Shown here piece by piece: positions 23,188-57,600 of a DNA stretch of 64,000 bases. Origin of the DNA: Gluconobacter albidus (GTDB lineage: Bacteria > Pseudomonadota > Alphaproteobacteria > Acetobacterales > Acetobacteraceae); contig NZ_BEWL01000009.1 in NCBI RefSeq assembly GCF_002723915.1, positions 62,001 to 126,000 of the forward strand, given 5' to 3'. The notes under the pieces were generated by a model. That model saw only the letters and a list, made by a program, of their open reading frames with translations, was not told where the DNA came from and searched no databases. The stretch's first letter is position 1. Each line of letters opens with the position of its first letter. The translations under genes and the position numbers were made by a program.

Positions 23188-26100
23188 CTACACGAGGGCC
23201 GATAAATGCACCGAAACCCTTTTAATTCGATCAGCACGCAAATCGCGCTCTTGTTGTGACATTGTGACCCGATGATTGGTCATCATCACCTCGATTTTCT
23301 GATCCAACTCTTTGAGCCTCGGAGTTGCCGTCTTCTCCAACATGTTCGCCAGCACGCGGTTGGCCACCTCACGTCCGTAATCTCGGCCATCCTGCGCCAT
23401 TTCTTCCTGCATCTTGCCGAGACGGATCAGCTCCTGAACGTGCTTTTCCCGTTCCTCCTGCGACGTGAAGGGCAGATCCATGCCAAGCGCCTTGTAGGGC
23501 TTATTGGACATACCCTTGGCCACATGATTCCACAGATCGTCGCTGGTGATCTCCGTCGTATCACCGAGCGCGCGCCCGTTGCGCACGGCCTCAAACGTCG
23601 CGCCGTCTGAGATCATGGTCCAGGTCGTCCCCTTGGCCCGGCTTTCTGCCACGTAGGACGTAAACCCGGTTGCCGTCGCCACGCCTCGTGGGAGTGCGTT
23701 GATATGCTCGTCTGAGGTGAGGCCCTGGGCGGCATCAATGGTCATGGCATGACCGAAGCCAAGCAGGATCCGGCCGGTCTTGTGGTCCTTCAGGCGACGC
23801 CATTCAACATCCGCCTCCCGTCCGTCCTTCATCCGGACTTTCAGGCCATCCTTGCCGTGCGAGACAACCTCCACGACATCCCCATTGTTGCCAACGGTGG
23901 TCCCTGTTCCTTCGACCGCCCCCCAGGTGCGCCGGAAAAGGCGCAGCCTATCGCCGGCAGCGACCTGAAGCTCATAGGTTTCGCCACGCTGATCGACCGC
24001 ATCCAGTGTCACTTCATCCCGGGAAATCTCGCCACGGTTCTGCAGGATCCTGCGCACAGCGCGGCTGAGGTCGGCCGCGTCCTGGTTGGTCAGGGCCGAC
24101 ATGCTAATTCCGCGCTTTGATCCGGACGCGGCCAGAGCGTCGCGGCGCGTGACATAAAGGTCAGCGATTTTTTGCAACACCTCATCCTGATCGCCACCGA
24201 CGAGACGGATAGTCCCGTCCTCGCGCTTCATGTCGATGGCGCGGCGGACTTCCTCAAAGTGAAAGGCGTTGCGCGGATCGTCCGCATTTTCCTGATCCCG
24301 GTTGGCATAGGCGGCCTTCCCTTTGGGGCGACGCGCCTCCAGTGCATCCGCACTCGGCTTCTCGCCACGAAACAGTCCGGCGATCTCACGATTGCGGGCC
24401 GTTGTCTGGCGGACCGTGGACAGCAGCTCCGGCATATCCTCCTTGGCCAGAACCCTGCGTAGGATCTCGACAGTATCACCGGCCTCAATGGATTGAGCCT
24501 GCTCCCGGTCGCCCAAGGCCTTGATGGTGCAGCCGCTCGCGCGTTGCAGCTCCAGAAGCTGAAGCATCTGGCGCGGTGCGATCTGGCCGACCTCGTCAAT
24601 GACCAGAACCGTGTTCTCGTCCACGGTCTGCTCGCCTTTCTCAAGGCGGCTCAGGAAGGGCATCATAGCGTAGCGCTGATGGATCCCGGCATCGCCAAGC
24701 GCATCCGCCTGACGCCAGGCCGTCGCAAGGCCAATCATCTCACGGCCCTTCTCCGAGAAGCGGGTATCGCGCTTCCAGGCATCCACAAGCGGCTGAAGCA
24801 GCGTTGTCTTACCGGAGCCGGCAACGCCCGTGAGCATCGAAATCTTTCCGGCCTTCCCCAGGGCGTAGATCGCCGCCTTCTGGGACTGGCCGTGTTCGTT
24901 GTCGAAATCGAGGTCGCATCGCGCGATGGCCTCTGTGAGTTGGGCGTCCGAAAGGGAAGCAGTGCGATCCGCCGAGGCCCGAACGGCCTCCCTGGCGAGG
25001 GTCTCCTCGACACGGATCTGGGCCGTGTTGGTGACGCGCATCCGATCATTCTTCACGCACGACACAAGGCTCACCTGTTCGCCCCGAACCTCAAGGCCTT
25101 TGTCCTCGATCAGTTTGACAACCTGGTCGATGTCTTCAATGCCCCCGGGGATGCCCGCTCCGATGAGGCCGCGAGCGGCGTACATCCTCAGCTTGTCATG
25201 ATCGAGAACGGCCGCCGTCTCAAACTCCTTGCCGAGATGCTTGGCCGCAAACGCGTAGGCCTGCTCATGCCGGTCCGCGACAGATAACTCCTTGGCCTCA
25301 GCCATGCCCATGACGCTGTGATGCTCCCAGCCAATCGCAGCGGCGCGTTCGCGCCAGGCCTGAACGTCGTCAGCGGATTCATTCTTCTTCTGCCTGTGCG
25401 CCAGACTGGCGGCCTTGAGCATCTTGTTCTTCAGCTCGGCCGTCATGGTGTTCCAGTCGTGCCCCTCCTTCTCGGCATAGGCCCGAGCGGATCGCGTCAC
25501 CTCGGCCGTGCGGCTGGAAAAAGCGTCACAGGCCTCCTGCGGAACGGCGGAGATAACAGTCGCCTGCTCCTTGGCGTCGTAGGACTGCTCGATCCCTAGT
25601 TTGCGCAGCTCATCCGCCAGTTCCGCCTGGAAGAAGGCTCCGAACTCATGCACGCGAGAGCGCAGGCGCTTGGTGTCCAGCGAGCCCACATGACCGCTCT
25701 CTGTCACAACCACATTGTAGAGCGAGTTGTGGATGTGCATCTGCGGATCGCCCCCGGTCGGGGCCTCACGCAGATAGGTGGTATCGGTCTCGGCATCATG
25801 CAGGGTCAGGGTCGGGCGCGACGTGCGGTGACGGTAGGACGTCCAGGCGACCTCCCCGGCTTCTTCTCCGTCTTCCCCGCCATGCCCACGTCGGGCAAAG
25901 CCAAGCTCGCGGGCCACATACTGCATGGTTGCGTCATTGGCCCGTTGCACAGCGTTCCAGATGGCGGCCCCTTCGGCCTGCGTGGGCGCGAGCTCGGCAG
26001 CCAGCGTGACCGACTTGTGCGGGGCCATGGTCAGATCATAGGCGCTGATCTTTCGCTTTGCCTGAGACCATTGCTCGCCATTGTCAGCGCGCTTGCCCTC

Positions 26101-26364
26101 GAACAGGGCCGCAAGTGTTTCGGTCGTGGGCATGGCGCGCCGATCCACGCCGAGGACGTCCGCCATCTGCTGGCTCATGCCCGGATTGAACGAGGCCCGG
26201 CCATCGCGGCCGAGATAGTAATTCGTGAGGCGCTGACCATCACCGTCCGGCACCTTGCCGGTGTCCGTGCGGAAATCGTGCTCCGGATCCGGTGCCCCTT
26301 CGGTGAAGTATGCGGCCACGAACTTGCCGTTACACTCCGCCGAAATCTTGCGGAAGGTCATCAT
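23188..26364 (-). CDS. traI: MobF-family conjugative relaxase-helicase (TraI/TrwC-like)
   Basis: 1058-residue relaxase that nicks oriT and unwinds the plasmid. The N-terminal TrwC domain has candidate catalytic tyrosines Tyr19 and Tyr49/Tyr50, and the metal-binding histidine motif MHIHN (His210, His212). The helicase part has Walker A at about residues 513-521 (GVAGSGKTT) and Walker B near residue 590 (VLVIDEVGQ). The C-terminus continues the RecD/TraI-type helicase with GHAMTIDAAQGLT. The start codon overlaps the stop of the small accessory gene upstream (ATGA). A MobF relaxase paired with an I-type (Dot/Icm) mating system is noteworthy, because IncI plasmids use a MobP relaxase. Confidence 0.92.
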   Translation of the reverse strand: MMTFRKISAECNGKFVAAYFTEGAPDPEHDFRTDTGKVPDGDGQRLTNYYLGRDGRASFNPGMSQQMADVLGVDRRAMPTTETLAALFEGKRADNGEQWSQAKRKISAYDLTMAPHKSVTLAAELAPTQAEGAAIWNAVQRANDATMQYVARELGFARRGHGGEDGEEAGEVAWTSYRHRTSRPTLTLHDAETDTTYLREAPTGGDPQMHIHNSLYNVVVTESGHVGSLDTKRLRSRVHEFGAFFQAELADELRKLGIEQSYDAKEQATVISAVPQEACDAFSSRTAEVTRSARAYAEKEGHDWNTMTAELKNKMLKAASLAHRQKKNESADDVQAWRERAAAIGWEHHSVMGMAEAKELSVADRHEQAYAFAAKHLGKEFETAAVLDHDKLRMYAARGLIGAGIPGGIEDIDQVVKLIEDKGLEVRGEQVSLVSCVKNDRMRVTNTAQIRVEETLAREAVRASADRTASLSDAQLTEAIARCDLDFDNEHGQSQKAAIYALGKAGKISMLTGVAGSGKTTLLQPLVDAWKRDTRFSEKGREMIGLATAWRQADALGDAGIHQRYAMMPFLSRLEKGEQTVDENTVLVIDEVGQIAPRQMLQLLELQRASGCTIKALGDREQAQSIEAGDTVEILRRVLAKEDMPELLSTVRQTTARNREIAGLFRGEKPSADALEARRPKGKAAYANRDQENADDPRNAFHFEEVRRAIDMKREDGTIRLVGGDQDEVLQKIADLYVTRRDALAASGSKRGISMSALTNQDAADLSRAVRRILQNRGEISRDEVTLDAVDQRGETYELQVAAGDRLRLFRRTWGAVEGTGTTVGNNGDVVEVVSHGKDGLKVRMKDGREADVEWRRLKDHKTGRILLGFGHAMTIDAAQGLTSDEHINALPRGVATATGFTSYVAESRAKGTTWTMISDGATFEAVRNGRALGDTTEITSDDLWNHVAKGMSNKPYKALGMDLPFTSQEEREKHVQELIRLGKMQEEMAQDGRDYGREVANRVLANMLEKTATPRLKELDQKIEVMMTNHRVTMSQQERDLRADRIKRVSVHLSALV

Positions 26365-27599: not shown

Positions 27600-27642
27600 C
27601 CGCACCAACGGTGCAATGGTCTATGAAGAAGCTCTTTTCTAT
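27600..27642. other. Left part of probable oriT region
   Basis: Small inverted repeat GCACC-AAC-GGTGC at 27602-27614 just left of the 11-bp iterons, between divergent relaxase-side and TraK-side genes. This is where oriT lies in IncP-type modules. I cannot point to a nic site, because MobF nic sequences vary. Confidence 0.4.
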
Positions 27643-32024: not shown

Positions 32025-33500
32025 ATGCCTTCCGCCCACGGCTACACCTACCCGAACGTCTCGGATGATCCTGACCAGACGGACGTCCTCCGAAACCGCC
32101 TCGGCCTGCGCCGCCACTCCGAGCTTCACCCTGAGGAATACCGCCGCACCAGTCACAGGATTCTGGAAATCCGGATGGGTCTGGGGCCATCCGGCCATTT
32201 CGATGCCGACCACCTGAAGGCCATCCATCGGCATATCTTCCAGGACGTCTATGAGTGGGCCGGTCACATGCGCCACGAAAGGCCGGTCGTGGACGGGGCA
32301 CGGGTCGAACCGATCGGCTCCATGCGGAAAGGGTCAACAACCTTTCTGCCCGGCTCCCATATCGACATGGGGCTAAACGAGGCCTTCAAGCCCATTCGCA
32401 ACCCGGATGTGCTGAAGAACTCCACGCCGGAACAGTTCGCGGCCGTCGCCGGAAAGGTTCTGAACGAACTCAATTATGTCCACCCGTTCCGCGAAGGAAA
32501 CGGCAGAACGCAGGAGGCCTTTCTTTCAGAACTCGGCCGTCATTACGGGCATAACGTGGACCTCTCCGTCATCACAAGAGCCCGCATGGTGTCCGCGTCT
32601 ATTGCCGGCACGCAGGATCCGGATCACCCTGCTATGGCGGCCTTGCTGACAGATGCCACCGCTCCCGCCCGTGCGCGTGCCCTAAAGGAGCTGATGCAGG
32701 ACATGGGCTCTGGCCCTGCCGCAAGGCCGCTGGATGACCTCGTCATCCGCACGGCCGCACCTGGGGAAACGGTCTCGGGGATCTTCAAGGCACGGACCAG
32801 CCTCTCCGGTGCGTTCGAAACGCCTGACGGGATCGTGGCGGTGCCTGTCGCAGATCTGCGAAACGCTGTCCGACAAGATGGCGGATACACTGTCACCGTG
32901 CAGTCCGATTTTTTGACGGCCTCTGCTGCTCCAACGCTTCGGCCCGTGCCGCGTCCGGTCATCCCGGCTGTCTTCGGGCCTGCGGAAGAGAAGCGCGAAA
33001 GCGCGCTCCTGGCGCAGGCCAAGGAAGAAGGCCGCAAGGCCGCCGCCTCTCTTCATGCGTTCTGGTCGGCCCCGCCTTCCCTCGTCTGCCGCGACATCGA
33101 GGCCGCGATCCGCCAGGAGGGCGGCGATGCAGCACAGGCCTTCACCGGCATGAAGGCCGGAGGCCGTCATGCGGCGCTCGGGAAAGAGATCGAAAAGGAA
33201 CTGCGCCACAATCCCACCTTCGCGCGCGAGCTGGGCAAGGTGCAGAAGGACATGGCAGCCTATGGCGACAGTCGGGAAAAGGCCTTTGCGTTTGGGGCCG
33301 CTCACGGTCGGGAAACAGCAATCCTGACAGACCTGGCCGGGACGGATCGGGAGATCGCCCGCCATGCCAGCCGGACTCCCACCTCTGAACCGGGCCGCGC
33401 CCTGATTCAGACCCTGACCGGCCAGCCGGCCCTAAACGCCCCGGAAGACCCGACAGGCCGCCCGTCTCTTTCGTCCGCCCGAACACCCGGCCCCGGCTAA
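32025..33500 (+). CDS. fic: Fic-domain toxin (VbhT-like) with modified Fic motif
   Basis: 491-residue protein. The N-terminal Fic domain (about residues 1-210) has the motif HPFREGNGRTQE at residues 153-164. Catalytic His153 and Arg161 are intact, but the last position, normally Arg (HPFxEGNGRxxR), is Glu164. Fic proteins usually transfer AMP from ATP to target proteins such as gyrase; loss of this Arg might change nucleotide binding. The C-terminal 280 residues are helical and basic at the end; I see no clear BID signal. As a paired toxin-antitoxin next to conjugation genes it could stabilise the plasmid or be delivered during mating. Confidence 0.85.
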   Translation: MPSAHGYTYPNVSDDPDQTDVLRNRLGLRRHSELHPEEYRRTSHRILEIRMGLGPSGHFDADHLKAIHRHIFQDVYEWAGHMRHERPVVDGARVEPIGSMRKGSTTFLPGSHIDMGLNEAFKPIRNPDVLKNSTPEQFAAVAGKVLNELNYVHPFREGNGRTQEAFLSELGRHYGHNVDLSVITRARMVSASIAGTQDPDHPAMAALLTDATAPARARALKELMQDMGSGPAARPLDDLVIRTAAPGETVSGIFKARTSLSGAFETPDGIVAVPVADLRNAVRQDGGYTVTVQSDFLTASAAPTLRPVPRPVIPAVFGPAEEKRESALLAQAKEEGRKAAASLHAFWSAPPSLVCRDIEAAIRQEGGDAAQAFTGMKAGGRHAALGKEIEKELRHNPTFARELGKVQKDMAAYGDSREKAFAFGAAHGRETAILTDLAGTDREIARHASRTPTSEPGRALIQTLTGQPALNAPEDPTGRPSLSSARTPGPG

Positions 33501-33508
33501 TCGCCCCC

Positions 33509-34055
33509 TGTTTTCCTAGACCCATCCTGCCCGTGCGGCGAGCACACTGACGGCGACGAGAATGGAACGACGGTGGCGTTTTCCTGAGCCCATCCTACCA
33601 CTGGCCAAGACGGGCGACGGGACAGGCCGTCAAGCCCGGAGCGTCCTGAGCAAGGGGGGCAGGCTTGCGGCTGATGCGGGGTCGCGTGCGGCCCTGCAGC
33701 AGACGCGGGCCTGACACCTGCCGCCGAGGGTCGCGCAGTGGCTTTACGGACTGGCACGGCGACTGTCAGACTGAACGCTGGATGCGAGGCCGCCGTCGTG
33801 GAACGTGCCTCCCCGGACGGTCCGCAGGACTGGCCGGGGAGGTTGAGGAGCCGTCTCACGAACCGATCAGCCACACCAGGACCGTCCGTCATCGGAAAAG
33901 GATGCGGGTGAACCGTTACCCGGAAGGGCCGAGACGCAGGGGCCAGACGCCCGACCAAGGGCGGCTGGACCTTGTGGCTCGGTGGAGCTTGGCGACGCAG
34001 GAGCCTAGCGGAATAGGGTGAACGAACCCGTCAGGGCCGCCCCGATCCTTCTTTC
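33509..34055. repeat. 547-bp direct repeat, copy R1
   Basis: From TGTTTTCCTAGACCCATCCT to GATCCTTCTTTC, almost identical (about ten differences seen by eye) to copies at 35628-36174 and 37617-38162. Contains an internal half-duplication (GTTTTCCT then CCCATCCTGCC-like, about 33510-33535 and 33578-33600), GACTGTCAGACTGAACGC at 33761-33778, a 9-bp stem CCTCCCCGG/CCGGGGAGG (33808-33816, 33834-33842) and a distal stem GGGCGGC/GCCGCCC. Open frames on both strands are a result of high GC; an indel in R3 breaks the longest one. Interpreted as a structured non-coding element, perhaps an Frpo/ssi-type single-strand promoter. Confidence 0.9.
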
Positions 34056-34090
34056 ACTTCTGGCTCGGGAAATTAACTTCGGACAGAGTT

Positions 34091-34125
34091 TTCAGTCGCA
34101 AACTGCTCACGCATGATTCTTTCGA
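34091..34125 (+). promoter_or_regulatory. AGTCGCA-type element before a small membrane protein gene
   Basis: TTCAGTCGCA at 34091-34100, AAC, then GCATGATTCTTTCG at 34110-34123, with spacing identical to the copy at 10523. The ATG of the downstream gene is at 34186. Confidence 0.62.
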
Positions 34126-34185
34126 CGCCACAGAACCGAACTGCGCCCCGAACGGGCCAGTGTTTTGCGTCCGGAGATCGAGACG

Positions 34186-34539
34186 ATGCCTCACTTTCCT
34201 ACCGTATGGCCTTATTTTACAGCCCTTTTCGTGGTTCAGATTCTATTCAAAACTGCCGTCTCGGCGACGCAAGACGGTTCTGAAAGCGGTTATGGCGCAA
34301 CTTCCCTCGTTCACTCACTGACCAGAGCCGTCTTCGACACGGCCATGGGATGGGTGAGACGCAGCACGCGCTATGGTCTCTTTCTCGCTGTCCCTCTGAC
34401 GGCGCTGCTTGGAGCGATGGCGCTTGGAGCGGCGCTAATGGGCCATGAAAAGGAAGGCATGACCTGCCTTGAGGCTGCGTTCATTTCCGGCATGACTGGA
34501 TGGTTTTTGGATCTGCTATCGAACGCGATTGAGGATTAA
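34186..34539 (+). CDS. Small membrane protein of unknown function
   Basis: 117-residue protein with hydrophobic segments at about residues 8-22, 64-85 and 98-112. No family recognised. The ATG at 34186 is used; a TTG at 34165 is in frame but without advantage. It is one of few plus-strand genes in this region and has its own AGTCGCA element. Confidence 0.6.
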   Translation: MPHFPTVWPYFTALFVVQILFKTAVSATQDGSESGYGATSLVHSLTRAVFDTAMGWVRRSTRYGLFLAVPLTALLGAMALGAALMGHEKEGMTCLEAAFISGMTGWFLDLLSNAIED

Positions 34540-34554
34540 TGAAACGGGCACGCT

Positions 34555-34625
34555 CCTGGCGCAGCCCCCCTGTGGGGGGCGAGCATTGGGGGCAAAACAC
34601 TTCGCGCCGACGAGGCGCGTCCGCC
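34555..34625. repeat. 71-bp GC-rich hairpin repeat, copy A
   Basis: CCTGGCGCAGCCCCCCTGTG and onward, with hairpins CCCCCC-TGT-GGGGGG (34565-34579) and CGCGCC-GACGA-GGCGCG. Nearly identical to 36385-36455 (about four differences). Lies between convergent genes here. Confidence 0.85.
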
Positions 34626-34745
34626 TTCCTGGAAAAAACGACGGGGAAATGAGACGGGCGAACGGGAGAAGAGGCCGAGGGCAACGCCGAGGCCGTCAGC
34701 GCGGCCCCGGTGAGTGGCCGGACCTGCTGGCCCGGCCTGTGGGGG

Positions 34746-35414
34746 TTAGAGAACGGCCCCCCATTGTGCGGCACGGACGTTCTCGGTGAGGCTGCGGGCG
34801 TTGTCCTTGACGTAAGGCTTCCAGTCTTCCCCGATCAGTTCGCGGTAGGCGTCACATGCGCCCTGAGCCATGACGGCGAGCGCGTAAGCCTTAGGGGCCT
34901 GCTGTGCAGCGAAACGGACGGCCCGATCTACGCGGTTTTCCCCGCCGTCGATGCCTTGGCGGTCTTCGTCGCGGCTTTCGTTGCTGAAAGAGTTCTGCTC
35001 GTCGCGGGCAATCTGGCGCTTGTTCTCATAGAAGTTGGCGGCACCATAGGCAGAGCGGATCAGGCCGTCCACGATGCGGCCAAGGTGCATTTCCATGGCC
35101 TTGAAATTGCGCTCGCCCCGGAAGTCGGTGACGACAAGCACATCCTCAAGAAGCGTGTACTGGTCGCGGATCATGCTGAGACCGGCCCCCATCAGCTCGT
35201 CATAGTCGCCAGCCTCGAAACCGAAATGCTGAACGATAGCGGCGATCTTGTCATCGTTGGGGGCGAGGCGCATGACGTCTGCCAGCGTGGGAGCGGCAAT
35301 GGCCTTGGTGCGCTCGCGGGCTTCGTTGAAACGGCGGACGGCGGCGGGGCTGGCCTTGTTTGCAGCCTTGCGGTTCTGGGCCTTCGGTGCGATTGTGGTT
35401 GCTGCGTCGGACAT
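34746..35414 (-). CDS. Leading-region protein of unknown function
   Basis: 222-residue soluble protein with a basic Ala-rich N-terminus and a helical middle (KAMEMHLGRIVDGLIRSAYG). No family recognised. ATG at 35414 has AAGGTGAG upstream. The 210-nt region between it and repeat R2 resembles the region between ssb and R3 (shared phrases around ACCGCCAT and TTGRTTACT), suggesting a duplicated promoter module. Three direct copies of GACAAGYRAAAA (35502, 35535, 35587) lie upstream and could be operator sites. Confidence 0.65.
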   Translation of the reverse strand: MSDAATTIAPKAQNRKAANKASPAAVRRFNEARERTKAIAAPTLADVMRLAPNDDKIAAIVQHFGFEAGDYDELMGAGLSMIRDQYTLLEDVLVVTDFRGERNFKAMEMHLGRIVDGLIRSAYGAANFYENKRQIARDEQNSFSNESRDEDRQGIDGGENRVDRAVRFAAQQAPKAYALAVMAQGACDAYRELIGEDWKPYVKDNARSLTENVRAAQWGAVL

Positions 35415-35627
35415 GAAACTCACCTTTTCTAGTCTAGCGAAGTCCCGGCTTGGTGTTCCAGCACTAACCGGGGCGCTTTGTCTTGAGGGCCAATCCCTCT
35501 CGACAAGTAAAAGATAGCCTTTCTGGCCTTTCATGACAAGCGAAAAAGCGCAGAAAACCGCCATAAAACGCGCTTTATTTTCGCATGACAAGTAAAAAGA
35601 TTACTTGGTTACTTTATGAATACCTGT

Positions 35628-36174
35628 TGTTTTCCTAGACCCATCCTGCCCGTGCGGCGAGCACATTGACGGCGACGAGAGTGGAACGACGGTGGCGTTT
35701 TCCTGAGCCCATCCTGCCACCGGCCAAGACGGGCGACGGGACAGGCCGTCAAGCCCGGAGCGTCCTGAGCAAGGGGGGCAGGTTTGCGGCTGATGCGGGG
35801 TCGCGTGCGGCCCTGCAGCAGACGCGGGCCTGACACCTGCCGCCGAGGGTCGCGCAGTGGCTTTACGGACTGGCACGGCGACTGTCAGACTGAACGCTGG
35901 ATGCGAGGCCGCCGTCGTGGAACGTGCCTCCCCGGACGGTCCGCAGGACTGGCCGGGGAGGTTGAGGAGCCGTCTCACGAACCGATCACCCACACCAGGA
36001 CCGTCCGTCATCGGAAAAGAATGCGGGTGAACCGTTACCCGGAAGGGCCGAGACGCAGGGGCCAGACGCCCGATCAAGGGCGGCTGGACCCTGTGGCTCG
36101 GTGGAGCTTGGCGACGCAGGAGCCTAGCGGAATAGGGTGAACGAACCCGTCAGGGCCGCCCCGATCCTTCTTTT
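35628..36174. repeat. 547-bp direct repeat, copy R2
   Basis: Second copy of the element at 33509-34055; identical length, about ten substitutions from R1. Lies upstream, in the minus-strand sense, of the gene at 34746-35414. The internal stem CCTCCCCGG/CCGGGGAGG and the GACTGTCAGACTGAACGC core are conserved. Confidence 0.92.
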
Positions 36175-36181
36175 GCTTTTT

Positions 36182-36358
36182 CTACTGACGGCCCTGATTT
36201 CTGCCTGAAGAGTCCCGCGTGAGGAAGAACGCGGCAAACCCGACGGCAAGCACGAGCAGACCTCCTCTGATGGGATGCAGAAAGCCCTGCCAGATCAGAA
36301 GAAGAATGGCGAGCTGGATACTCAGCGCACCGACGCGGATGACTGTTTGTCGTGACAT
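36182..36358 (-). CDS. 58-residue membrane protein
   Basis: Short frame MSRQTVIRVGALSIQLAILL... ending at TAG 36182. Two hydrophobic stretches (about residues 10-27 and 32-47) joined by a basic turn (HPIRGG). No family recognised. It lies right after repeat R2 in plus coordinates and after the hairpin repeat at 36385-36455 in its own direction. Support comes from its hydrophobic pattern and from being one of a run of small membrane proteins next to ssb. Confidence 0.45.
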   Translation of the reverse strand: MSRQTVIRVGALSIQLAILLLIWQGFLHPIRGGLLVLAVGFAAFFLTRDSSGRNQGRQ

Positions 36359-36384
36359 GGGGCCAGTCTAGTCTTTTTCTCTGT

Positions 36385-36455
36385 CCTGGCGCAGCCCCCC
36401 TGTGGGGGGCGAGCATTGGGGGCAAGACACTTCGCGCCGAGGAGGCGCGCCCGCC
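36385..36455. repeat. 71-bp GC-rich hairpin repeat, copy B
   Basis: Second copy of 34555-34625, with the same two hairpins. Here it lies directly upstream of the 58-residue membrane protein gene in its reading direction. Confidence 0.85.
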
Positions 36456-36477
36456 TGACTGAACCGGGCGAGCGGAC

Positions 36478-36501
36478 AAAAAAAAGCGGCCCGGAGGCCG
36501 C
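36478..36501 (-). terminator. Intrinsic terminator of the ssb operon
   Basis: On the minus strand GCGGCC-TCCG-GGCCGC (36501-36486) followed by eight T residues. It ends the ssb, 92-residue and 41-residue gene run. Confidence 0.9.
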
Positions 36502-36510
36502 CTGTCGGTG

Positions 36511-36636
36511 TCACTGATGGGACGTTCGCAGCTTTGCCAGCCGGGTGGCAATGGGTCCGATCGCAAGCCCCAGACCGATGGTGAAAGCAGCGGCAGGAAG
36601 AAGAATAAACAGGATACTCTGGGTTACGTTATCCAT
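36511..36636 (-). CDS. 41-residue membrane protein
   Basis: Frame MDNVTQSILFILLPAAAFTI... to TGA at 36511. One membrane segment (about residues 8-28) and a basic C-terminus. Its ATG overlaps the stop region of the upstream 92-residue gene (ATGGATAA), as expected for coupled translation, which is the main evidence that it is real. Function unknown. Confidence 0.5.
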   Translation of the reverse strand: MDNVTQSILFILLPAAAFTIGLGLAIGPIATRLAKLRTSHQ

Positions 36637-36907
36637 TGGTTTTCGCCTCCGTCTTGTCCTCAGGATAGGGGATATACGCCAGAAAAGTCAAAGAAATTGC
36701 CTCAAGCGCGGCTCCCAGAAAAAAGCAGGTGACGGCACGCATGGGGGTCAACGGTCCTGTCCCTGAGATGAGCGGGGTCACGATGCCGAGCCCCCACGCG
36801 CTGAGGGCGAATGTCTGAAGGACGCTGGCAATCGCCTTGTAGCGGTCTTCCTTGTGTTTGGAGCGCTGCGGCGGGGGCAGCAGCGCCATGAGGCGGTCTT
36901 TGTTCAT
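36629..36907 (-). CDS. Small two-segment membrane protein
   Basis: 92-residue protein with a basic N-terminal part (RSKHKEDRYKAI) and two hydrophobic segments at about residues 29-48 and 60-80. No family recognised. It follows ssb by 28 nt and overlaps the 41-residue gene, so the three form one operon ended by the terminator at 36478-36501. Confidence 0.65.
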   Translation of the reverse strand: MNKDRLMALLPPPQRSKHKEDRYKAIASVLQTFALSAWGLGIVTPLISGTGPLTPMRAVTCFFLGAALEAISLTFLAYIPYPEDKTEAKTNG

Positions 36908-36935
36908 CTGGCGCTAGGCTCCTTTTTCCCGGCAC

Positions 36936-37430
36936 TCAAAATGGGATTTCGTCATCGAGGTCGTTCCCGCCCGGTGCGTCCCAGCCGCCATTGCGGTTTC
37001 CGTTGCCAGACGATCCCCCGGACCGGCCGCCATTGCTTCCACCAGCAAAGCCGCCCTCGCCTTCATCGCCATTGCCCCGGTTGCTGTCGATCAGCACCAG
37101 CTCACCCCGGAAACGGTCAATAACAACCTCTGTGGTGTAGTGCTCCTGACCGCCCTGATCGGTCCATTTCCGGGTGCGAAGTTCGCCTTCGAGATAGACC
37201 TTGCGGCCTTTGCGGAGAAAGCGCTCGGCCACATCACCCAGACGGTCATTGAAGATGACGACCCGGTGCCATTCGGTGCGCTCACGGCGTTCGCCGCTCT
37301 GGCGGTCATTCCATGTGTCAGACGTGGCGAGCGTAAAGCTCACGACCTTGGACCCGGACTGCGTATGACGGACTTCCGGGTCTTTACCAAGGTTGCCAAC
37401 GAGAATGACTTTGTTAACGGAACCAGCCAT
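36936..37430 (-). CDS. ssb: Single-stranded DNA-binding protein
   Basis: 164-residue SSB. The OB-fold occupies about residues 1-110 (SVNKVILVGNLGKDPEVRHT, then TEWHRVVIFNDRLGDVAERF and KVYLEGELRTRKWTDQGGQE). A Gly/Asn-rich linker and the acidic tip DDEIPF, which docks partner proteins, complete the canonical form. Plasmid SSBs coat the incoming strand and limit SOS induction. ATG at 37430 is chosen (an in-frame upstream ATG lacks a ribosome site). Its position just downstream, in the minus sense, of repeat R3 matches the arrangement of ssb behind single-strand promoters in leading regions. Confidence 0.95.
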   Translation of the reverse strand: MAGSVNKVILVGNLGKDPEVRHTQSGSKVVSFTLATSDTWNDRQSGERRERTEWHRVVIFNDRLGDVAERFLRKGRKVYLEGELRTRKWTDQGGQEHYTTEVVIDRFRGELVLIDSNRGNGDEGEGGFAGGSNGGRSGGSSGNGNRNGGWDAPGGNDLDDEIPF

Positions 37431-37616
37431 GAGAGCCTCCAAGACTTAGGGAACGTATCGACTGGACTTGTTCGGCGTTATTGCCTCTGTCCATGAATAG
37501 ATAATAGGTTTTTACTTGGTATCAGTCAACGAGAAACGGCAGGAAACCGCCATTTCCGAAGAAATAAAACTGAATGTAAAGGCGTTTTATTTGTTGATTA
37601 CTGAAAGGGTATTTGA

Positions 37617-38162
37617 TGTTTTCCTAGACCCATCCTGCCCGTGCGGCGAGCACACTGACGGCGACGAGAGTGGAATGACGGTGGCGTTTTCCTGAGCCCA
37701 TCCTGCCACTGGCCAAGACGGGCGACGGGACAAGCCGTCAAGCCCGGAGCGTCCTGAGCAAGGGGGGCGGGTCTGCGGCTGATGCGGGGTCGCGTGCGGC
37801 CCTGCAGCAGACGCGGGCCTGACACCTGCCGCCGAGGGTCGCGCAGTGGCTTTACGGACTGGCACGGCGACTGTCAGACTGAACGCTGGATGCGAGGCCG
37901 CCGTCGTGGAACGTGCCTCCCCGGCCGGTCCGCAGGACTGGCCGGGGAGGTTGAGGAGCCGTCTCACGAACAGATCCCCAGACCAGGACCGTCCGTCATC
38001 GGAAAAGAACGCGGGTGAACCGTTACCCGGAAGGGCCGAGACGCAGGGGCCAGACGCCCGGTTGAGGGCGGCTGGACACTGTGGCTCGGTCGAACTTGGC
38101 GACGCAGGAGCCTAGTGAGATAGAGTAAACGAACCCTTCAGGGCCGCCCCGATCTTCTTTTC
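37617..38162. repeat. 547-bp direct repeat, copy R3
   Basis: Third copy (546 bp), slightly more divergent. CCTCCCCGG-C-C and GG-CCGGGGAGG now pair over eleven bases. A one-base deletion near 37977 shifts any open frame, so coding is unlikely. Upstream (minus sense) of ssb by about 190 nt. Confidence 0.92.
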
Positions 38163-38171
38163 TTCTGCCCT

Positions 38172-38996
38172 TCAAATCACCCACGGGTCCGTGTCGAAGA
38201 GATGGAAAAGACTATTCTTCCCTTCCCGGCCCGCCTTCCTCGTCTTCCTTCTCAGAACCTTGCGTTCTTGACGGGCCTTGCGCCTTTTCTTCTCGTCAGC
38301 CTTCCAGCCGTCCCGGAGAACCGGGCGCAATTCTTGATACTGGCCTGTAATGCGGCCGTAGGACACGCGGCGGTAGCGCGCGAAGCCTCCGAAACGATCG
38401 ACATTTTTCAATAAAGTGGCTCTCCCCAGCCCGTGATAGAAGATGACGGCAGCGCCGTCCCGTGCATCTGAAGCTGAGGGCAGCCGGAGGAAAAGAGTGG
38501 CGAAGCCATCCGAGGTCTGAACCCATCCGGGCGCTGGCCCTGCCAGTTGCCGCAGCGGCATCAGGTCAAAGTCCGGACAGTTCTCGGCTATGGCTGCCGT
38601 GAGAGGCGGAGACCTGTGCCAGAAGCTGGCGCTACAGCCCGGCCAGTCTTTTGAGGCGTCCGTCGGAAACAGGATTCCGAAGACGGTGATGAGATCAGCC
38701 TCATAGACAAGCTGACCGCCCTGCCATTTGGCAAAGCCCGGATCATCGAAGCAGTCGAAATATTCCATCCCCCGGATACTGACATCGGGGTACTCGTCAG
38801 AAAGCCCATCTCCGTGACGGAGGAAGGACGTGCCGATGCCGTTTTCGAGGGTCATCACCAGCGTGGTGTCGTTCTCCCACGCCATCTGGTCCGGTGCGCA
38901 GGTCCGGTAGGCGCGCTCTTCGGCGATCTGGCGCAGACGGTCCTGGGGGCCGGTGAGCGTGAAGACTGTTGTGACGGCAGTAGCCACGGAAAACAT
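38172..38996 (-). CDS. Leading-region protein of unknown function
   Basis: 274-residue protein with several Trp/Phe/Cys residues in the middle and a strongly basic tail (about residues 235-262: ADEKKRRKARQERKVLRRKT). No family recognised. Either ATG 38996 or GTG 38987 could be the start; the GTG has AAAGGA eight bases upstream. It is preceded by a three-way-junction hairpin at 39047-39095 and followed by repeat R3. Confidence 0.65.
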   Translation of the reverse strand: MFSVATAVTTVFTLTGPQDRLRQIAEERAYRTCAPDQMAWENDTTLVMTLENGIGTSFLRHGDGLSDEYPDVSIRGMEYFDCFDDPGFAKWQGGQLVYEADLITVFGILFPTDASKDWPGCSASFWHRSPPLTAAIAENCPDFDLMPLRQLAGPAPGWVQTSDGFATLFLRLPSASDARDGAAVIFYHGLGRATLLKNVDRFGGFARYRRVSYGRITGQYQELRPVLRDGWKADEKKRRKARQERKVLRRKTRKAGREGKNSLFHLFDTDPWVI

Positions 38997-39331: not shown

Positions 39332-40402
39332 TCAGCCTATATGCACGGCTAAGTTATGCGACCAAGGTCCTACTCCAGCTATTTCAAGCTCGAGATGTAC
39401 CAGTATTCGACGTTCGACGAGATCTCCCAATATCGCGACCCGAAACACACGTTCGACGCACATGAGTGGCGTATAGGATTCATTCGAGATAGGACTAGAA
39501 TAAGGGATCGAAGCCAACCTCACGATATCAAGCTTGAGCAGCTCCTCTAACCAAGGAGAGCCCATGTAGTTTACCCAGTATTCGGACAGACGAGAGCCAA
39601 AGTCTTGAAAGAAAGGGCTCTCGCCGCGGCGCATCGACAAGCACATCATAAGCTTTTGTGGGAGGGCCGCTATGCCACTCACTACGGCGATGTCTCCACC
39701 ATCGAGCATGAGGTCGTTATTGGCTGAAAGAGCGAAGTCACTTGGAAGACTTGCGGCGGGAGTGCGGGGGGCGTTTGGTGCCACCTGGCACTCAACGAGT
39801 ACTAGGGTTCTTTCTCGTCGCACCGAAAGACTCCCTATCGAGCGGCCTTCCCCCAGACTGTTTACCAGCACATATCGATCATACTCCGGTATCGATCTCA
39901 GATTGCCGGCCAAACGGACCAGGTCGGAAAAATCGCCGGTTACGAAATGCTCGATCTCAAAGTGCCATTGGTCGTCTTGAGCGTAGTTTATTTCCCCCAC
40001 CGCCACGATTTCCGGCCCGAATGCAATTAAGTGTTTGATGTTCTGCTCTCCAGCAGCGCCGGTTAGAGCCTGCTTACACCGAGAATAGTGGTCCGCCTTG
40101 TACCGCTGCAAAACCTCTACCGTGTATGTAAAGACGTCGGTATCCACGAGGCGTCCGTGGTTAGCGCAGAGCCATATGCCGTTGTCGATGCTGGCGCGCT
40201 CACCCGGGGTCATTTTGGAATCATAGCGCGGACCGCCTGGTGCTGCGGCGCAGATGTGTGCCGCAGTTCCTATATTGGAGATCGCGGCTGGCGCCTCGTC
40301 ACTCGGCCCCACCGTTGCCTGATTGCAGATCGAACATTTGTAAGCTGCCCTCAACGCGAGAGCGTTCCGAACGGATGCTGAAAAGTTATCACGAGCGGCC
40401 AC
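39332..40402 (-). CDS. HNH nuclease fused to a gp25/baseplate-W-like domain
   Basis: 356-residue protein. Residues about 8-110 are an HNH nuclease of the type common in defence proteins: YKCSICNQ, then NIGTAAHICAAAPGGPRYDS, then SIDNGIWLCANHGRLVD. The C-terminal 140 residues read DGGDIAVVSGIAALPQKLMM, then CLSMRRGESPFFQDFGSRLS, which resembles the phage gp25/GPW baseplate family (invariant Gly-Glu and Asp-x-Gly-Ser). That similarity was seen by eye and is not proven. Composition is AT-richer than the neighbours. A defence or anti-phage role is inferred. Confidence 0.7.
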   Translation of the reverse strand: MAARDNFSASVRNALALRAAYKCSICNQATVGPSDEAPAAISNIGTAAHICAAAPGGPRYDSKMTPGERASIDNGIWLCANHGRLVDTDVFTYTVEVLQRYKADHYSRCKQALTGAAGEQNIKHLIAFGPEIVAVGEINYAQDDQWHFEIEHFVTGDFSDLVRLAGNLRSIPEYDRYVLVNSLGEGRSIGSLSVRRERTLVLVECQVAPNAPRTPAASLPSDFALSANNDLMLDGGDIAVVSGIAALPQKLMMCLSMRRGESPFFQDFGSRLSEYWVNYMGSPWLEELLKLDIVRLASIPYSSPISNESYTPLMCVERVFRVAILGDLVERRILVHLELEIAGVGPWSHNLAVHIG

Positions 40403-40766
40403 GTTTTAAGCCTCAGTTTCAAATGCGTCATCCAGGTAGTCAGCATATTGCCCTGACTCGCCTTGTAACGTTTGTGATTGGCCTCCCTCCAGAGGAGTTG
40501 TAAAGTGTATAGCAGCGGTCATTATTCTTTCCCTGTATTCTATACTTCACCATGTGAATAGCAGGAAATGCTCCTCATGTCGGACGCTACTGCGTCAATA
40601 TACGTTTTCAGAAAACAGACTTGAACTTTCGACGCACGAACGCTGGCTGCCGTCAGTTTCGGAGCGGGTCAGCTTGCGACGGCAAAAAGCATACTAGACG
40701 AGTAGGGAAAACATTACTGGACCTCACTTGGTTGAGATAATGAGATCTCTTCGGCATAATCTCATT
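40403..40766. other. AT-richer intergenic region between two HNH genes
   Basis: Divergent promoters of the two nuclease genes must lie here. The only structure I see is an inverted repeat ATAATGAGA (40737-40745) and TCTCATTAT (40760-40768) that ends at the ATG of the second nuclease, a possible operator or translational hairpin. Confidence 0.5.
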
Positions 40767-41849
40767 ATGCCAATTACAATCGACAATTCGATCTACGATA
40801 AAAGCGGTCGCCTGCTATTTTGTAGCATAGAGAAATTCGTTTCTGAGATATGTGAGGGCAATAATTGTTTTATATGCGGACGACATCCTGAAGGAGTCTC
40901 ATTCAATAAAGAGCATATAATACCAAATTGGCTGTTGAGACTGGTCAATATTCACTCAGGAGATATTCAACTTCCAAACGGTAGGCTGCATCAATATGGA
41001 AGATATACCATTCCATGTTGCACTGAATGTAACACGCTCCTTGCGGAGCATTTTGAAAAACCAATCAGCAAAGCATTAGGGCAGGGATTTTCAGGTGTGC
41101 GCGCATTGGTCGAACGCGAGGGGACCGAGCGCCTGTTTTTGTGGATGGCGCTTCTCTTTGTTAAATTACACCTTAAAGATAAAACTCTTTTAGAAAATCC
41201 TGATATCCGTCTTGGACGATCTTACATATCAGATCGCTATGATTGGTCAACATTTCATCACATGCATTGTCTTATACGCGCTCATTATACGGGCGCAAAA
41301 ATTGGAAAGTATGTCCATGGATCAATTTTATTCTTAGAAGTTGGGAATAGTTTCGAAGATAATTTTTTTGATGTTGCTACTATAACCAATGCTTACACCT
41401 TGTTCATTCGAGTCAAGAATATTGCTATATACACTGTTTTTGACGATTCTGGTATTTGCTTGGAGGCTATTGAGCCCGTTTTGTCAAAAATAACGGGCGT
41501 GATGAATTCGGCGCAAGCTCGCGAGCTGGCCGCAGAACTGGCGGCGGCAAATATTCACCTTAAAACTTCTCCCAGCTTCGGTACCAGCATGTCGAACACG
41601 GATGGTGATAATCTTGAAATTATAGCTTTCCATCCAGAAGATGAGGCCGAGTTTTTTCCTAAAAACAATAACTTAATAGGTCACATCAAGCGCCACATTT
41701 TAGAGAATTATTGTCAAACAACAATGCATCATACGCGCGAAGAAGCCCTAGAATTACTTAGCTCAAACAAATACTCTTTCTTATTCAACAGCGAGGGGAA
41801 GTTTGTCACTGGGGGCTGTAAGGAAAATTCGCAGCCTGCGCGTAGCTAG
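40767..41849 (+). CDS. HNH-type nuclease candidate
   Basis: 360-residue protein. The N-terminus has CFICGRHPEGVSFNKEHIIP (about residues 34-53) followed by NWLLR and a second cysteine pair (CCTECN at about 83-88): an HNH fold with a structural zinc. The rest is not recognised. ATG 40767 lies in an inverted repeat; ATG 40740 and TTG 40728 are in-frame alternatives. Strongly AT-rich compared with the plasmid, indicating recent transfer. Being divergent from another HNH gene, the pair may be a defence module. Confidence 0.68.
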   Translation: MPITIDNSIYDKSGRLLFCSIEKFVSEICEGNNCFICGRHPEGVSFNKEHIIPNWLLRLVNIHSGDIQLPNGRLHQYGRYTIPCCTECNTLLAEHFEKPISKALGQGFSGVRALVEREGTERLFLWMALLFVKLHLKDKTLLENPDIRLGRSYISDRYDWSTFHHMHCLIRAHYTGAKIGKYVHGSILFLEVGNSFEDNFFDVATITNAYTLFIRVKNIAIYTVFDDSGICLEAIEPVLSKITGVMNSAQARELAAELAAANIHLKTSPSFGTSMSNTDGDNLEIIAFHPEDEAEFFPKNNNLIGHIKRHILENYCQTTMHHTREEALELLSSNKYSFLFNSEGKFVTGGCKENSQPARS

Positions 41850-54602: not shown

Positions 54603-57600
54603 TCAGGCGGCCTCTACGGCCACGGCCTGATCTGCCAGCGCTGCCTTTGCCTCGGCTGCTTCAGCCTTCTCCGCCTCCTCACGGCGCTGCGTATCGGCTG
54701 CCAGATCCGCCTCCAGGGCCGCCATGGCCTCGCGTTTCTCCTGTAACAAAGCCGCCTCCGGGAACGCCAGACCCACACGGGCGCGGTAGCCGGGGAGCTT
54801 GCGCTCGGCTTCTTCCACCTGACGGCGCGCGTCCGCCAGCTCGGCCTCGAACCGCAGCAGCGCGTTCTCGATGCGGCTGACCAGCCCGACCGGGCTTGTC
54901 TCGCGGTCGAAGTCCATGCCGAGGATCCGCCCGTCCAGCACAAGACCGAGGGTCGCGTCCCACGTCTCTTCCCCGTCGAAGCGTGTGCGCCAGGTCTCGC
55001 ACAGGATCTCGAAGCCGCCGATCGTGCCGAGCGTCCACTTGCCTTTCTCCCCGGCCTTCGCGGCGAGACGGGCCTGCGAGAGAAGCCACTGACCGGCCTT
55101 CTCACGTTCAGTCATCTCCCGGTCCTTGCGAACCAGACAGAACGCTTCACCGCGTGTCGGCTCACGCTTTGCGATGTCGTTCTGAAGACGCGGGATCACG
55201 GTCTGCGCTGTGTCACGGTCACGCTCGGCACGGTCGATGGCACGACGGACGTTATACTGATCGTCGTGATGGGCGGCCTGCAACCGCTCCAGACGGGCCA
55301 GCTCGGCCTCCAGTCCAGCCTTCTGCATCAGGCGTTCGTCACCCGACGCCAAAGCTTTTGCCATGGCGAACTGGTTGGCTTCTGCGCCCACGTCTTCCAG
55401 ACGGCGGATGGTCCGGTCTCCAGACATGGCAAGGCAGATGAACTTCTGCTTGCGCTCCAGCATCTGCCAGTTGGTCGCGTCCACCGAGCCTTTCAGGGCG
55501 TAGGCGTAAAGCTGGATCACCGGGTTCTGGTTGCCCTGCCGCTCGATGCGGCCTTCACGCTGGATGATGTCCGAGACCAGCCAGGGCACATCGAGGTGAT
55601 GCAGGGCGATCAGCCGCTGCTGCGCATTCACCCCAGTCCCCATGGTCGCGGAAGACCCGATCAGGATCCGCTTGCGCCCGGAGTTCATGTCGCGGAAGAG
55701 CGCCTGCTTGGCCGTGCTCTTCTTGTAGTGCTGCATGAAGGCGATCTCGTCGCGCGGGATGCCCATGCGGATCAGCTCGTCGCGGATCCAGCGATAGGCC
55801 GAGAAACCGCGTGTCTCCAGCGCGGATTCCGTGCCCAGATCCGAGAAGATCATCTGCGTGGCACCCGGCAGGTCGTACTCCCGTCCCGTCTCAGGGTCGG
55901 TGTAGCGATTGGCCGACGTGTCCTGCCAGATCTGGAAGACCTTGCGGATCATGACGTTCAGCTTGTTGCTGTTGTCATTCTCTGCCCAGTTCCGCACGAA
56001 ACGCAGGTCGATGGCAGCGTGCCGGGCATCGGTAATGACGGACAGCAGGATGTCGTCGCCCTTCTGGGGCTTGCCAGTGCGCTCTTCAATCGTCTTGATC
56101 CGCTCCGCGAGCGTCTTCTGATACTCGCGGAAGGCGTCCCCACTATCGGCCACGACGATCTCACGTCTGCCGCCCGCCACCTCTGGCAGTTTGACGTAGC
56201 GTCGCAGGTCATCCTGCTGCACGACGTCGGCAAAGTCGCGATACATCGCCATCAGGTCGGCGACATTCACAAACTCGGAGAACCGCGTGACAGGCTTGTA
56301 AAGACCGCTCGGCTGAAGCTCCAGTTCCGTGCGGGTCTCGCCAAAACTTGCGGCCCAGGCGTCGAACTCGTGCAGACCACGCTCGACAAGGGCTGGCAGA
56401 TCCATGAACCGCTGGATCGAGAACATCTCGCCAAGTGTGTTGGTAATCGGCGAGCCTGACGCCATCACCAGCACGCGTTCGGGATTACGCTTGGCAAGGT
56501 AGCGCGTTTTCACGAACAGATCCCAGGCGCGCTGGCTGCCGTTCGGGTCGATCCCCTTCAGATCGGACTGGTTCGTGCCGAAAGACAATTTGCGGAACTG
56601 CTGCGCCTCGTCCACGAGGATCTGGTCCACCCCGATCTCGCCAAGATGCACGAGATCGTCCTTGCGGCTGGACAGGGCCTTCAGCTTGGCTTCCATCCCC
56701 TCCTTCAGGCGCTCGATGCGCTTGCGCGACAGACGGTCGTCCCGGTTCACATTCTCCAGAAGGCTTTCGTAGGACGCGATCTGGTCCTCGACCATTTCCT
56801 GCTCAAAGGCGCTCTCGACCGGCACGAACTTGAAGGCGTCATGCGTGATGACAATGGCGTCCCACTTCCCCGTGGCCGCCCGGGCCAGGAACCGCTGGCG
56901 CTTGTCCTTCACGAAGTTGGTCTCGTCCGCCACGAGGATCTGGGCGTTCGGGTAGAGCATCATGAACTCACGCGCCATCTGCGCAAGGCAGTGTCCGGGC
57001 ACCACGATCATGCCCTTGGAAATCAGACCGAGGCGCTTTTGCTCCATCACGGCCGCGCACATCGAGAACGTCTTCCCGGACCCCACCGCATGGGCCATGT
57101 AGGTGCTGCCCTTGGCGATGATCCGCCAGATCACCCGCTTCTGATGGTCGCGCAGACTGATGGCCGTGCTCGCTCCCGGCAGTTTCAGGTGGGAGCCGTC
57201 GAACGTGCGCGGGACAAGGTTGTTGAACGCATCGTTATACAGCCGCACCAGACGCTCGGCGCGGTCAGTGTCCTGCCACACCCACGTCTCGAACGCGGTC
57301 TTGATCGCGGCCAGCTTTTCCTTGGCGGCCTCGGTCTCCTTTGTATTCAGTTCACGGTGTTCGCCATTCACATCGCGCCAGGTGTCCCAGATTTTCGGGC
57401 TGGCCTGATTGAGCGCATCGTCCAGCAGATCCCCGGCATGGCGGCGCTGTGTTCCCCAGACCGACGTTGCCTCCGCCTTGCCGGAAAACCCGCTCTTGTC
57501 CACGCTCCAGGTCGCCACCTCCATCGTGTGGTGAATGGTCGTGCAGACCCCCATGACCTCTGCGACGAAAGCCTCGACATCCGGCACGGGGATCCACGGG

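What the first reader, a model, noticed from the sequence alone, without database searches (positions are those of the whole stretch)
33509..38162. Three near-identical 547-bp direct repeats in the leading region, likely single-strand promoters
Copies at 33509-34055, 35628-36174 and 37617-38162 differ at only about ten positions by eye between R1 and R2. They contain conserved stems (CCTCCCCGG/CCGGGGAGG and GGGCGGC/GCCGCCC). R3 and R2 each lie 190-215 nt upstream of a minus-strand transcript (ssb operon; 35414 gene), and the intervening sequence is also partly shared. Frames in these repeats are not coding, since R3 has a one-base shift. In F and IncI plasmids, repeated ssi/Frpo elements act as promoters on the incoming single strand in front of ssb and anti-defence genes. 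The minus-strand genes here point toward oriT, so the plus strand would be the transferred template, as the model requires. I recognise no previous example with this sequence.
Basis: partly seen in the sequence, partly recalled or inferred. Interest (0 to 1): 0.85.

Follow-up and report, generated by a model that had tools for sequence, protein, structure and literature searches.

The report
Folding start signals on incoming plasmid strand
Three near-identical 547-base repeats on a Gluconobacter plasmid lie on the strand that should enter the recipient cell first and carry a folding module also found in repeats of the classic plasmids F, ColIb-P9, R388 and R46, so they are probably an overlooked branch of a known kind of switch that starts gene expression during plasmid transfer.

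Summary
The three 547-nt repeats are real (95-98% identical, same strand, the only copies in this genome). An R388-like oriT at 27602-27630 makes the plus strand the T-strand and puts the repeats 5.9, 8.0 and 10.0 kb into the leading region. The last ~140 nt of each repeat is a module whose hairpins are backed by many compensatory changes. It recurs in Acetobacteraceae plasmids, typically upstream of ssb and of a 222-aa gene. A covariance model trained without the window, F, R46 or ColIb-P9 finds it on the T-strand in both F repeats that should hold Frpo1 and Frpo2, upstream of ColIb-P9 ssb, and in IncN CUP-type repeats. R388 repeats carry it too; 40 kb of ColIb-P9 transfer genes gave no hit. 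Not shown: transcription from single strands, a -35/-10 inside the fold, or a job for R1, which faces no gene. Ordinary double-strand promoters lie between R2/R3 and their genes, so priming of strand conversion is a close rival. The module itself folds equally well on both strands. New variant of a known kind; I found no paper linking Frpo, ssi, CUP and these repeats.

The parts
33509..34055 (+). Repeat R1, behind fic; 5' domain about 33510-33885, 3' module 33903-34042
   Evidence: module (E 4.4e-14)
35628..36174 (+). Repeat R2, 213 nt upstream of the 222-aa gene; module 36022-36161
   Evidence: module (E 4.4e-14)
37617..38162 (+). Repeat R3, 186 nt upstream of ssb; module 38010-38149
   Evidence: module (E 3.5e-15)
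27602..27630 (+). oriT-like hairpin plus nic (GCACC-AAC-GGTGC-AATGGTCT|ATG); sets T-strand = plus
   Evidence: R388 counterpart at L239:16151
23188..26364 (-). MOBF (TrwC-type) relaxase with helicase part
   Evidence: Pfam PF08751, E 1.9e-45
34746..35414 (-). 222-aa gene downstream of R2; no known domain; the named hits among 28 relatives are all acetic acid bacteria
   Evidence: mostly helical model, mean pLDDT 78.6
36936..37430 (-). single-strand DNA-binding protein downstream of R3
   Evidence: Pfam PF00436, E 1.1e-35
35511..35539 (-). ordinary promoter-like site of the 222-aa gene, TTGTCA-N17-TATCTT, overlapping the conserved CTATCTTTTACTTGT leader motif
37501..37529 (-). ordinary promoter-like site of ssb, TTGACT-N17-TATTAT
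   Evidence: 10 of 12 matches; 3 such sites found in 33400-38300, 0.7 expected
32025..33500 (+). Fic-domain protein, ends 8 nt before R1
   Evidence: Pfam PF02661, E 8e-14

Best explanation
The repeats are T-strand-acting folded elements of the Frpo/ssi/CUP kind. As the plus strand enters the recipient 5' end first, each repeat folds into a large imperfect stem (5' domain) plus a compact three-hairpin module on its 3' side. The fold lets host enzymes, most likely RNA polymerase as at F Frpo, start RNA on the still single-stranded plus strand, moving left into ssb (R3) and the 222-aa gene (R2). The RNA serves as early message and/or as primer that makes the adjacent ordinary promoter double-stranded. 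Shown here: the repeats, their place and strand, the covarying fold, and a module shared with repeats of F, ColIb-P9, R388 and R46. Inferred: RNA start on single-stranded DNA, early expression, and that the module takes part in it.
For: oriT hairpin and nic on the plus strand, R388-like. In the 23 loci that hold both the site and a motif-bearing copy, every copy is on the nic strand, 3.9-10.1 kb on its leading side, none opposite (some loci overlap). R3 as single-stranded DNA z -4.2 on plus, -3.0 on minus; R1 as RNA z -2.6 vs -1.4; alignment fold of 24 5' domains -276 on plus vs -220 on minus. Module: 15 of 24 pairs with changes on both sides, 0 of 500 shuffles; with R388, Oligella and rhizobial copies 24 of 28; with F, R46, ColIb and window added 24 of 28; the last two alignments were fitted to the structure. 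Model R2 on 23 kb of F leading DNA + 50 kb of R46: 5 matches at E<=5, all in leading regions on the strand taken as T-strand, both F repeats among them. On ColIb-P9: 2 matches, both in the 22-kb leading stretch, 0 in the 40-kb transfer stretch. F repeats are 559 bp, 89% alike. In fetched annotated plasmids the module lies 233-258 or 579-631 nt upstream of the start in 10 of 10 ssb and 13 of 14 222-aa genes that I tabulated.
Against: R1 follows fic and faces no T-strand-templated gene. No sigma-70-like site lies inside the repeats; the three found lie outside. Strand evidence is mixed: the module and the short Acetobacter form (z -5.4 and -5.3) fold equally well on both strands. The wobble counts of the 5' domain (370 plus, 99 minus) favour plus, but the same measure does not pick the true strand of RNase P, cobalamin or SRP RNA. 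Likeness of the 5' domain to the F Frpo core was not tested directly. The F, ColIb and R46 matches are weak one by one (E 5e-6 to 5e-3, rough calibration). T-strands of F, ColIb and R46 were taken from gene orientation and general knowledge; the nic pattern found nothing in R46. The F module lies some 60 nt or more beyond the stretch I first took as Frpo, so it may not be part of the promoter.
Confidence: 0.6

Rival explanations
1. Pure single-strand initiation (priming) site: the fold only starts complementary DNA synthesis, which runs left and makes the adjacent promoter and gene double-stranded first; transcription then starts at the ordinary promoter before a repressor builds up (CUP/ArdK-type zygotic induction).
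For: Ordinary promoter-like sites lie between repeat and gene for both R2 and R3. The leader motif CTATCTTTTACTTGT is exact in 10 of 14 222-aa leaders and 3 of 10 ssb leaders tabulated. Each repeat sits on the side from which primed synthesis would reach the promoter. R1 needs no gene; R46 has a comparable lone module right behind its plus-strand stbABC operon. CUP operons are described as having a promoter and an ArdK site (PMC5371602, passages).
Against: F repeats of this kind are demonstrated single-strand promoters (PMC9849209, passages). Narrow spacing to gene starts is not needed for priming alone. The window's own ssb leader lacks the shared motif (best match 6 mismatches).
Confidence: 0.22
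2. Plus-strand structured non-coding RNA made from double-stranded plasmid; the folding seen is RNA folding.
For: The 5' domain has as much G-U (15.8%) as RNase P RNA (11.5%) and folds better on the plus strand.
Against: No plus-strand promoter-like site in 33400-38300; no Rfam match of note. F Frpo, a known single-strand DNA promoter, has a similar wobble share on its T-strand (10.3%). Placement tracks the oriT strand and ssb.
Confidence: 0.09
3. Double-strand regulatory or insulating repeat: terminator of the upstream operon plus operator, kept alike by recombination.
For: A minus-strand terminator-like stem with a T-rich tail lies in the module of each repeat (10 such sites found in the region, 4.9 expected). 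The module folds on both strands. The 3.4-kb pDMIN-A looks like an R1-R2 recombination circle.
Against: Does not by itself explain the restriction to the oriT strand and leading region, or the module in the Frpo and ssi plasmids.
Confidence: 0.07

Closest known systems
F plasmid Frpo1/Frpo2 repeats (single-strand promoters)
   Same: two 559-bp direct repeats (89%) upstream of leading-region operons, one directly before ssb; 3' module recognised on the T-strand by a model that saw neither F nor the window
   Different: -35/-10 in the hairpin reported for F, not identified here; core likeness not tested; three copies here; alphaproteobacterial hosts
ColIb-P9 ssi elements
   Same: module on the T-strand upstream of ssb and between ardA and the next gene
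   Different: MOBP relaxase; weak matches; published ssi coordinates not checked
IncN CUP (conserved upstream) repeats of R46/pKM101
   Same: several repeats between leading operons, module-like 3' end in two long repeats and one lone copy
   Different: module match weak; ArdK-type repressor not sought in the window
R388 (IncW) 659-bp leading-region repeats
   Same: two repeats (95%) just upstream of minus-strand genes, one of them the ardC-type metallopeptidase gene; same oriT type and layout; module E about 1e-7 with model R1
   Different: sequence differs; host range

Membership tests
Frpo/ssi single-strand promoters | lies in the leading region of a conjugative plasmid | tested here: met
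   oriT and strand; MOBF relaxase
Frpo/ssi single-strand promoters | upstream of genes whose template is the T-strand | tested here: met
   R2 and R3 yes; R1 no (2 of 3 copies)
Frpo/ssi single-strand promoters | T-strand form folds stably, fold conserved | tested here: met
   but module and short form fold equally on both strands
Frpo/ssi single-strand promoters | structural relation to the F and ColIb repeats | tested here: met
   3' module only
Frpo/ssi single-strand promoters | likeness of the promoter core (5' domain) to Frpo | not tested
   no direct comparison run; the Frpo BLAST was capped at the 5000 best records, nearly all enterobacterial
Frpo/ssi single-strand promoters | -35/-10 rebuilt in the folded strand | tested here: inconclusive
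   no consensus site inside the repeats; a weak TTTACG-N17-TCAGAC read by eye in the 3' arm; TATAGA in short Acetobacter forms, read by eye
Frpo/ssi single-strand promoters | RNA synthesis from single-stranded DNA, early expression | not testable with these tools
   needs mating transcripts or in vitro assay
IncN CUP repeats | repeats at the 5' ends of leading-region operons | tested here: met
   R2 and R3
IncN CUP repeats | ordinary promoter plus repressor site near the gene | tested here: inconclusive
   promoter-like sites found; motif in the 222-aa leader but not the window's ssb leader; repressor not identified
IncN CUP repeats | similarity to R46 CUP sequence | tested here: inconclusive
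   module only, E 6e-4 to 5e-3
known structured RNA (Rfam 15) | match to a family | tested here: not met
   (only weak, unrelated matches)

The most novel reading that the evidence does not exclude
F Frpo repeats, ColIb-P9 ssi, IncN CUP repeats, IncW repeats and the repeats of acetic acid and rhizobial plasmids are one ancient family: a shared T-strand module marks 'start RNA here' on incoming single strands across alpha-, beta- and gammaproteobacterial plasmids, coupled to host-specific promoter folds and double-strand promoters.
Probability: 0.5. Interest if true: 0.85.

Novelty: new variant of a known kind. Interest (0 to 1): 0.73.

Why it matters
Single-strand promoters have been studied in F and ColIb-P9, and the two surveys whose passages I read find new ones by sequence likeness to a few Frpo sequences and, in one, by E. 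coli -35/-10 boxes (PMC11541004, PMC12826799). A structural module that recognises repeats of F, ColIb-P9, R46 and R388 alike, and finds them in alphaproteobacteria, gives a way to locate early-expressed, often anti-defence genes in plasmids where sequence likeness fails. It also makes testable whether CUP repeats, described as double-strand promoters under ArdK, act on single-stranded DNA.

Tried and rejected
Known structured RNA or ribozyme: no Rfam match of note. Coding repeat: start codon not kept. RNA versus DNA by wobble share: rejected, because the F Frpo control has RNA-like wobble, and the same measure does not even pick the true strand of RNase P, cobalamin or SRP RNA. RNA versus DNA by loop type: in the automatic scan 14 of 17 module hairpins have triloops against 15 of 158 in RNase P, but only 3 of 34 in F Frpo, and the loops are homologous, so not used. 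Concerted evolution: within-plasmid identity 93.4% against 92.6% at the same position between plasmids, no clear signal. Phage origin: no phage record and no viral contig. The first class-wide search with model R1 hit only the own genome (1 of 385); model R2, trained more widely, hit 11 of 385 including own (contexts of the ten others not looked at), so the first result was a sensitivity limit. Eight of 51 stretches (L063, L070, L071, L074, L087, L101, L107, L111) look like chance and were dropped. Six antisense matches and one weak one entered the alignment; I re-ran without L114, L115, L119, L092, L085 and L053. In one search two L022 positions and the 621H distance across the record origin were typed by hand; L022's R2 copy in fact lacks most of the module and is counted as the miss. 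Genes were chosen from fetched plasmids: L118's ssb, which has another gene between it and the element, and second SSB-type genes are not in the count. The hairpin signature was designed after seeing the hits, misses the window's long hairpin, and its background is mononucleotide shuffles only.
Full report
Observation. The window carries three 547-nt direct repeats, R1-R3, as described; they are the only copies in the own genome. Relatives: 18 places in 9 Gluconobacter plasmid records (two records are the same 621H plasmid), 17 of 26 genomes of the genus, 12 of 299 family genomes by BLAST, several of them weak. A motif scan of one genome per species (84,980 species) gave 51 stretches: 43 in Acetobacteraceae (Gluconobacter, Neokomagataea, Acetobacter, Komagataeibacter, Gluconacetobacter) and eight that look like chance. 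The IMG/VR viral contigs and the phage records gave none.

Where and which strand. Left of the repeats lies a MOBF relaxase. At 27602-27630 a hairpin followed by AATGGTCT|ATG matches the R388 oriT, which I read in NC_028464 as GCACCGAAAGGTGCGTATTGTCT|ATAG at the same place relative to the relaxase side and the first plus-strand operon. That the strand carrying this nic is the T-strand is established knowledge for R388 (recalled). So the plus strand enters first, going right, and reaches R1, R2 and R3 after 5.9, 8.0 and 10.0 kb. Among 90 loci scanned, most of them short, 27 show the hairpin-nic. I took 26 on (all but L027, whose copy lies across the record origin): in the 23 with a motif-bearing copy every copy is on the nic strand and on its leading side, none opposite; the other three (L116, L117, L120) carry short forms, whose modules are on the same strand.

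Fold. R3 as single-stranded DNA: z -4.2 on plus, -3.0 on minus. F yardstick, 414 nt upstream of ssb: T-strand z -7.5, complement -5.9. A short Acetobacter form folds equally on both strands, -5.4 and -5.3. An alignment of 24 divergent 5' domains folds better on plus (-276 against -220) and shows more G-U on plus (370 against 99 cells). The G-U measure is not trustworthy for strand, since RNase P, cobalamin and SRP RNA do not show their true strand by it. Nor does it tell RNA from DNA, since F Frpo has 10.3%.

The module. The last ~140 nt of each repeat also occurs without the long 5' domain in Acetobacter, Kozakia and Komagataeibacter plasmids. In most short forms printed it follows an AT-rich stretch with a TATAGA box, read by eye, that can form a hairpin whose 3' arm would be the non-template strand for leftward transcription. 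Its hairpins: a (3 bp, mostly GNAA-type loop), b (stem, conserved A-G mismatch, stem), c (T-T mismatch in most), a closing helix with tandem G-A, and d outside. In 21 sequences (18 distinct; none from the window; one, L055, Neokomagataea, is put in the window's genus by the tool) 15 of 24 pairs have changes on both sides and 0 of 500 shuffles reach the observed covariation. RNAalifold finds the same three hairpins and the closing pairs unaided. A covariance model from these (R1) finds the three repeats in the window with E 3.5e-15 to 4.4e-14; a fourth match, E 0.49, lies in the 78-nt repeat. In 299 family genomes it hits 16.

Genes behind it. Among genes tabulated from fetched plasmids, 10 of 10 ssb and 13 of 14 222-aa genes have a module 233-258 nt (short form) or 579-631 nt (long form) upstream, on the side that makes the T-strand the template; the miss, L022, has a truncated copy. 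The list is not complete (see Tried and rejected). Other copies precede a Toprim/UvrD operon in Neokomagataea and Acetobacter lambici. R1 follows fic and faces no such gene.

Link to known systems. Model R1 hit R388 twice, E about 1e-7: R388 has two 659-bp repeats, 95% alike, just upstream of the ardC-type metallopeptidase gene and of another minus-strand gene. Oligella, Pseudochrobactrum and Shinella plasmids have the module upstream of metallopeptidase or ParB-type genes. A second model, R2, from 16 sequences of alpha-, beta- and gammaproteobacterial plasmids (24 of 28 pairs covary) holds no window, F, R46 or ColIb sequence. On 23 kb of F and 50 kb of R46 it gives five matches at E<=5: F 13172-13094 (5e-6) and 18560-18480 (4e-4), and R46 22081, 23792 and 26297 (6e-4 to 5e-3). 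The F matches sit at the far ends of two 559-bp repeats, 89% alike. By place (directly before ssb; about 5 kb away) and likeness these must be the Frpo2 and Frpo1 repeats of PMC9849209; coordinates were not given in the passages I saw. Two R46 matches lie in its long leading-region repeats, the third is a lone copy right behind stbABC, a place much like that of R1. On ColIb-P9 it gives two matches, upstream of ssb and between ardA and the next gene, and none in 40 kb of transfer genes. The strand of the F, ColIb and R46 matches is the T-strand if leading genes are templated by it, as reported for such genes (PMC11541004, passages); I did not locate their nics, and the pattern failed in R46. 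In R46 the b hairpin reads CGAG-A-CGC-GTA-GCG-G-CTCG, in F GGAG-A-CAGC-TTC-GCTG-G-CTCC. In 385 genomes of the class R2 hits 11 including the own, against 1 with R1.

Mechanism. F Frpo1/2 are required for early expression of downstream genes from single-stranded plasmid (PMC9849209, passages), and Frpo-like sequences are common in leading regions (PMC11541004, passages; PMC12826799, passages). CUP repeats are described as the 5' ends of leading operons with promoter and ArdK site (PMC5371602 and PMC6289460, passages; the 1997 original was not seen). The window fits both: a T-strand fold as in Frpo, and ordinary promoter-like sites next to the genes as in CUP, with a leader motif conserved before the 222-aa gene but absent before the window's ssb. 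I rate RNA start on the folded single strand as most likely, with pure priming of the complementary strand as close rival; R1 and the double-strand promoters speak for the rival.

Print status. Searches of the held library for Frpo with leading region, single-stranded promoters, Gluconobacter with leading region, Gluconobacter plasmid non-coding RNA, acetic acid bacteria with conjugative plasmid repeats, CUP/ardK/pKM101, R388 with ssi or repeats and Frpo with CUP or ArdK listed no paper whose title or abstract start describes these repeats or the shared module. Some lists were cut, and most subscription journals are not held.

Noticed in passing
L020:8985-10464, L024:12449-13928, L025:299-1778: An IS110-family element sits in the tail of the repeat at about position 500-516 in three plasmids: a recurrent target inside the module.
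   Followed up: partly
L025 (pDMIN-A, 3428 bp): Small 'plasmid' equals one R1-to-R2 unit of an H24-like plasmid (one repeat, IS110, the 222-aa gene; about 90% identity): likely a recombination circle or assembly product.
   Followed up: partly
window 34554-34631 and 36384-36461: A second, shorter direct repeat (78 nt, 94%) with GC-rich hairpins at the 3' ends of the 222-aa and ssb operons; contains GGGCGAGCATTGG, like the module start (weak model match E 0.49), and recurs near the Neokomagataea element L055.
   Followed up: no
L022:8080-8250, L036, L046: Repeat copies with internal deletions that keep both ends.
   Followed up: no
window 39332-40402: N-terminal third matches defence-effector models (PDC-M68A, SAVED_HNH, endonuclease effectors, DUF4263; PADLOC E down to 9e-23), next to a protein with a weak HNH match at 40728-41849: possible defence cargo.
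   Followed up: no
window 54603-59741: 1712-aa protein with methylase and helicase parts (Eco57I, ResIII; weaker DrmD/BrxH-like PADLOC hits) in the leading region.
   Followed up: no
L176-L178, L180; L023:12038-12205, L024:12039-12206, L026:32-199: Automatic annotation calls small genes inside Frpo and inside these repeats; probably spurious.
   Followed up: partly
L022:11015-11128: PLSDB lists a vanY resistance gene in a 114-bp frame of the ssb operon, probably a false call.
   Followed up: no
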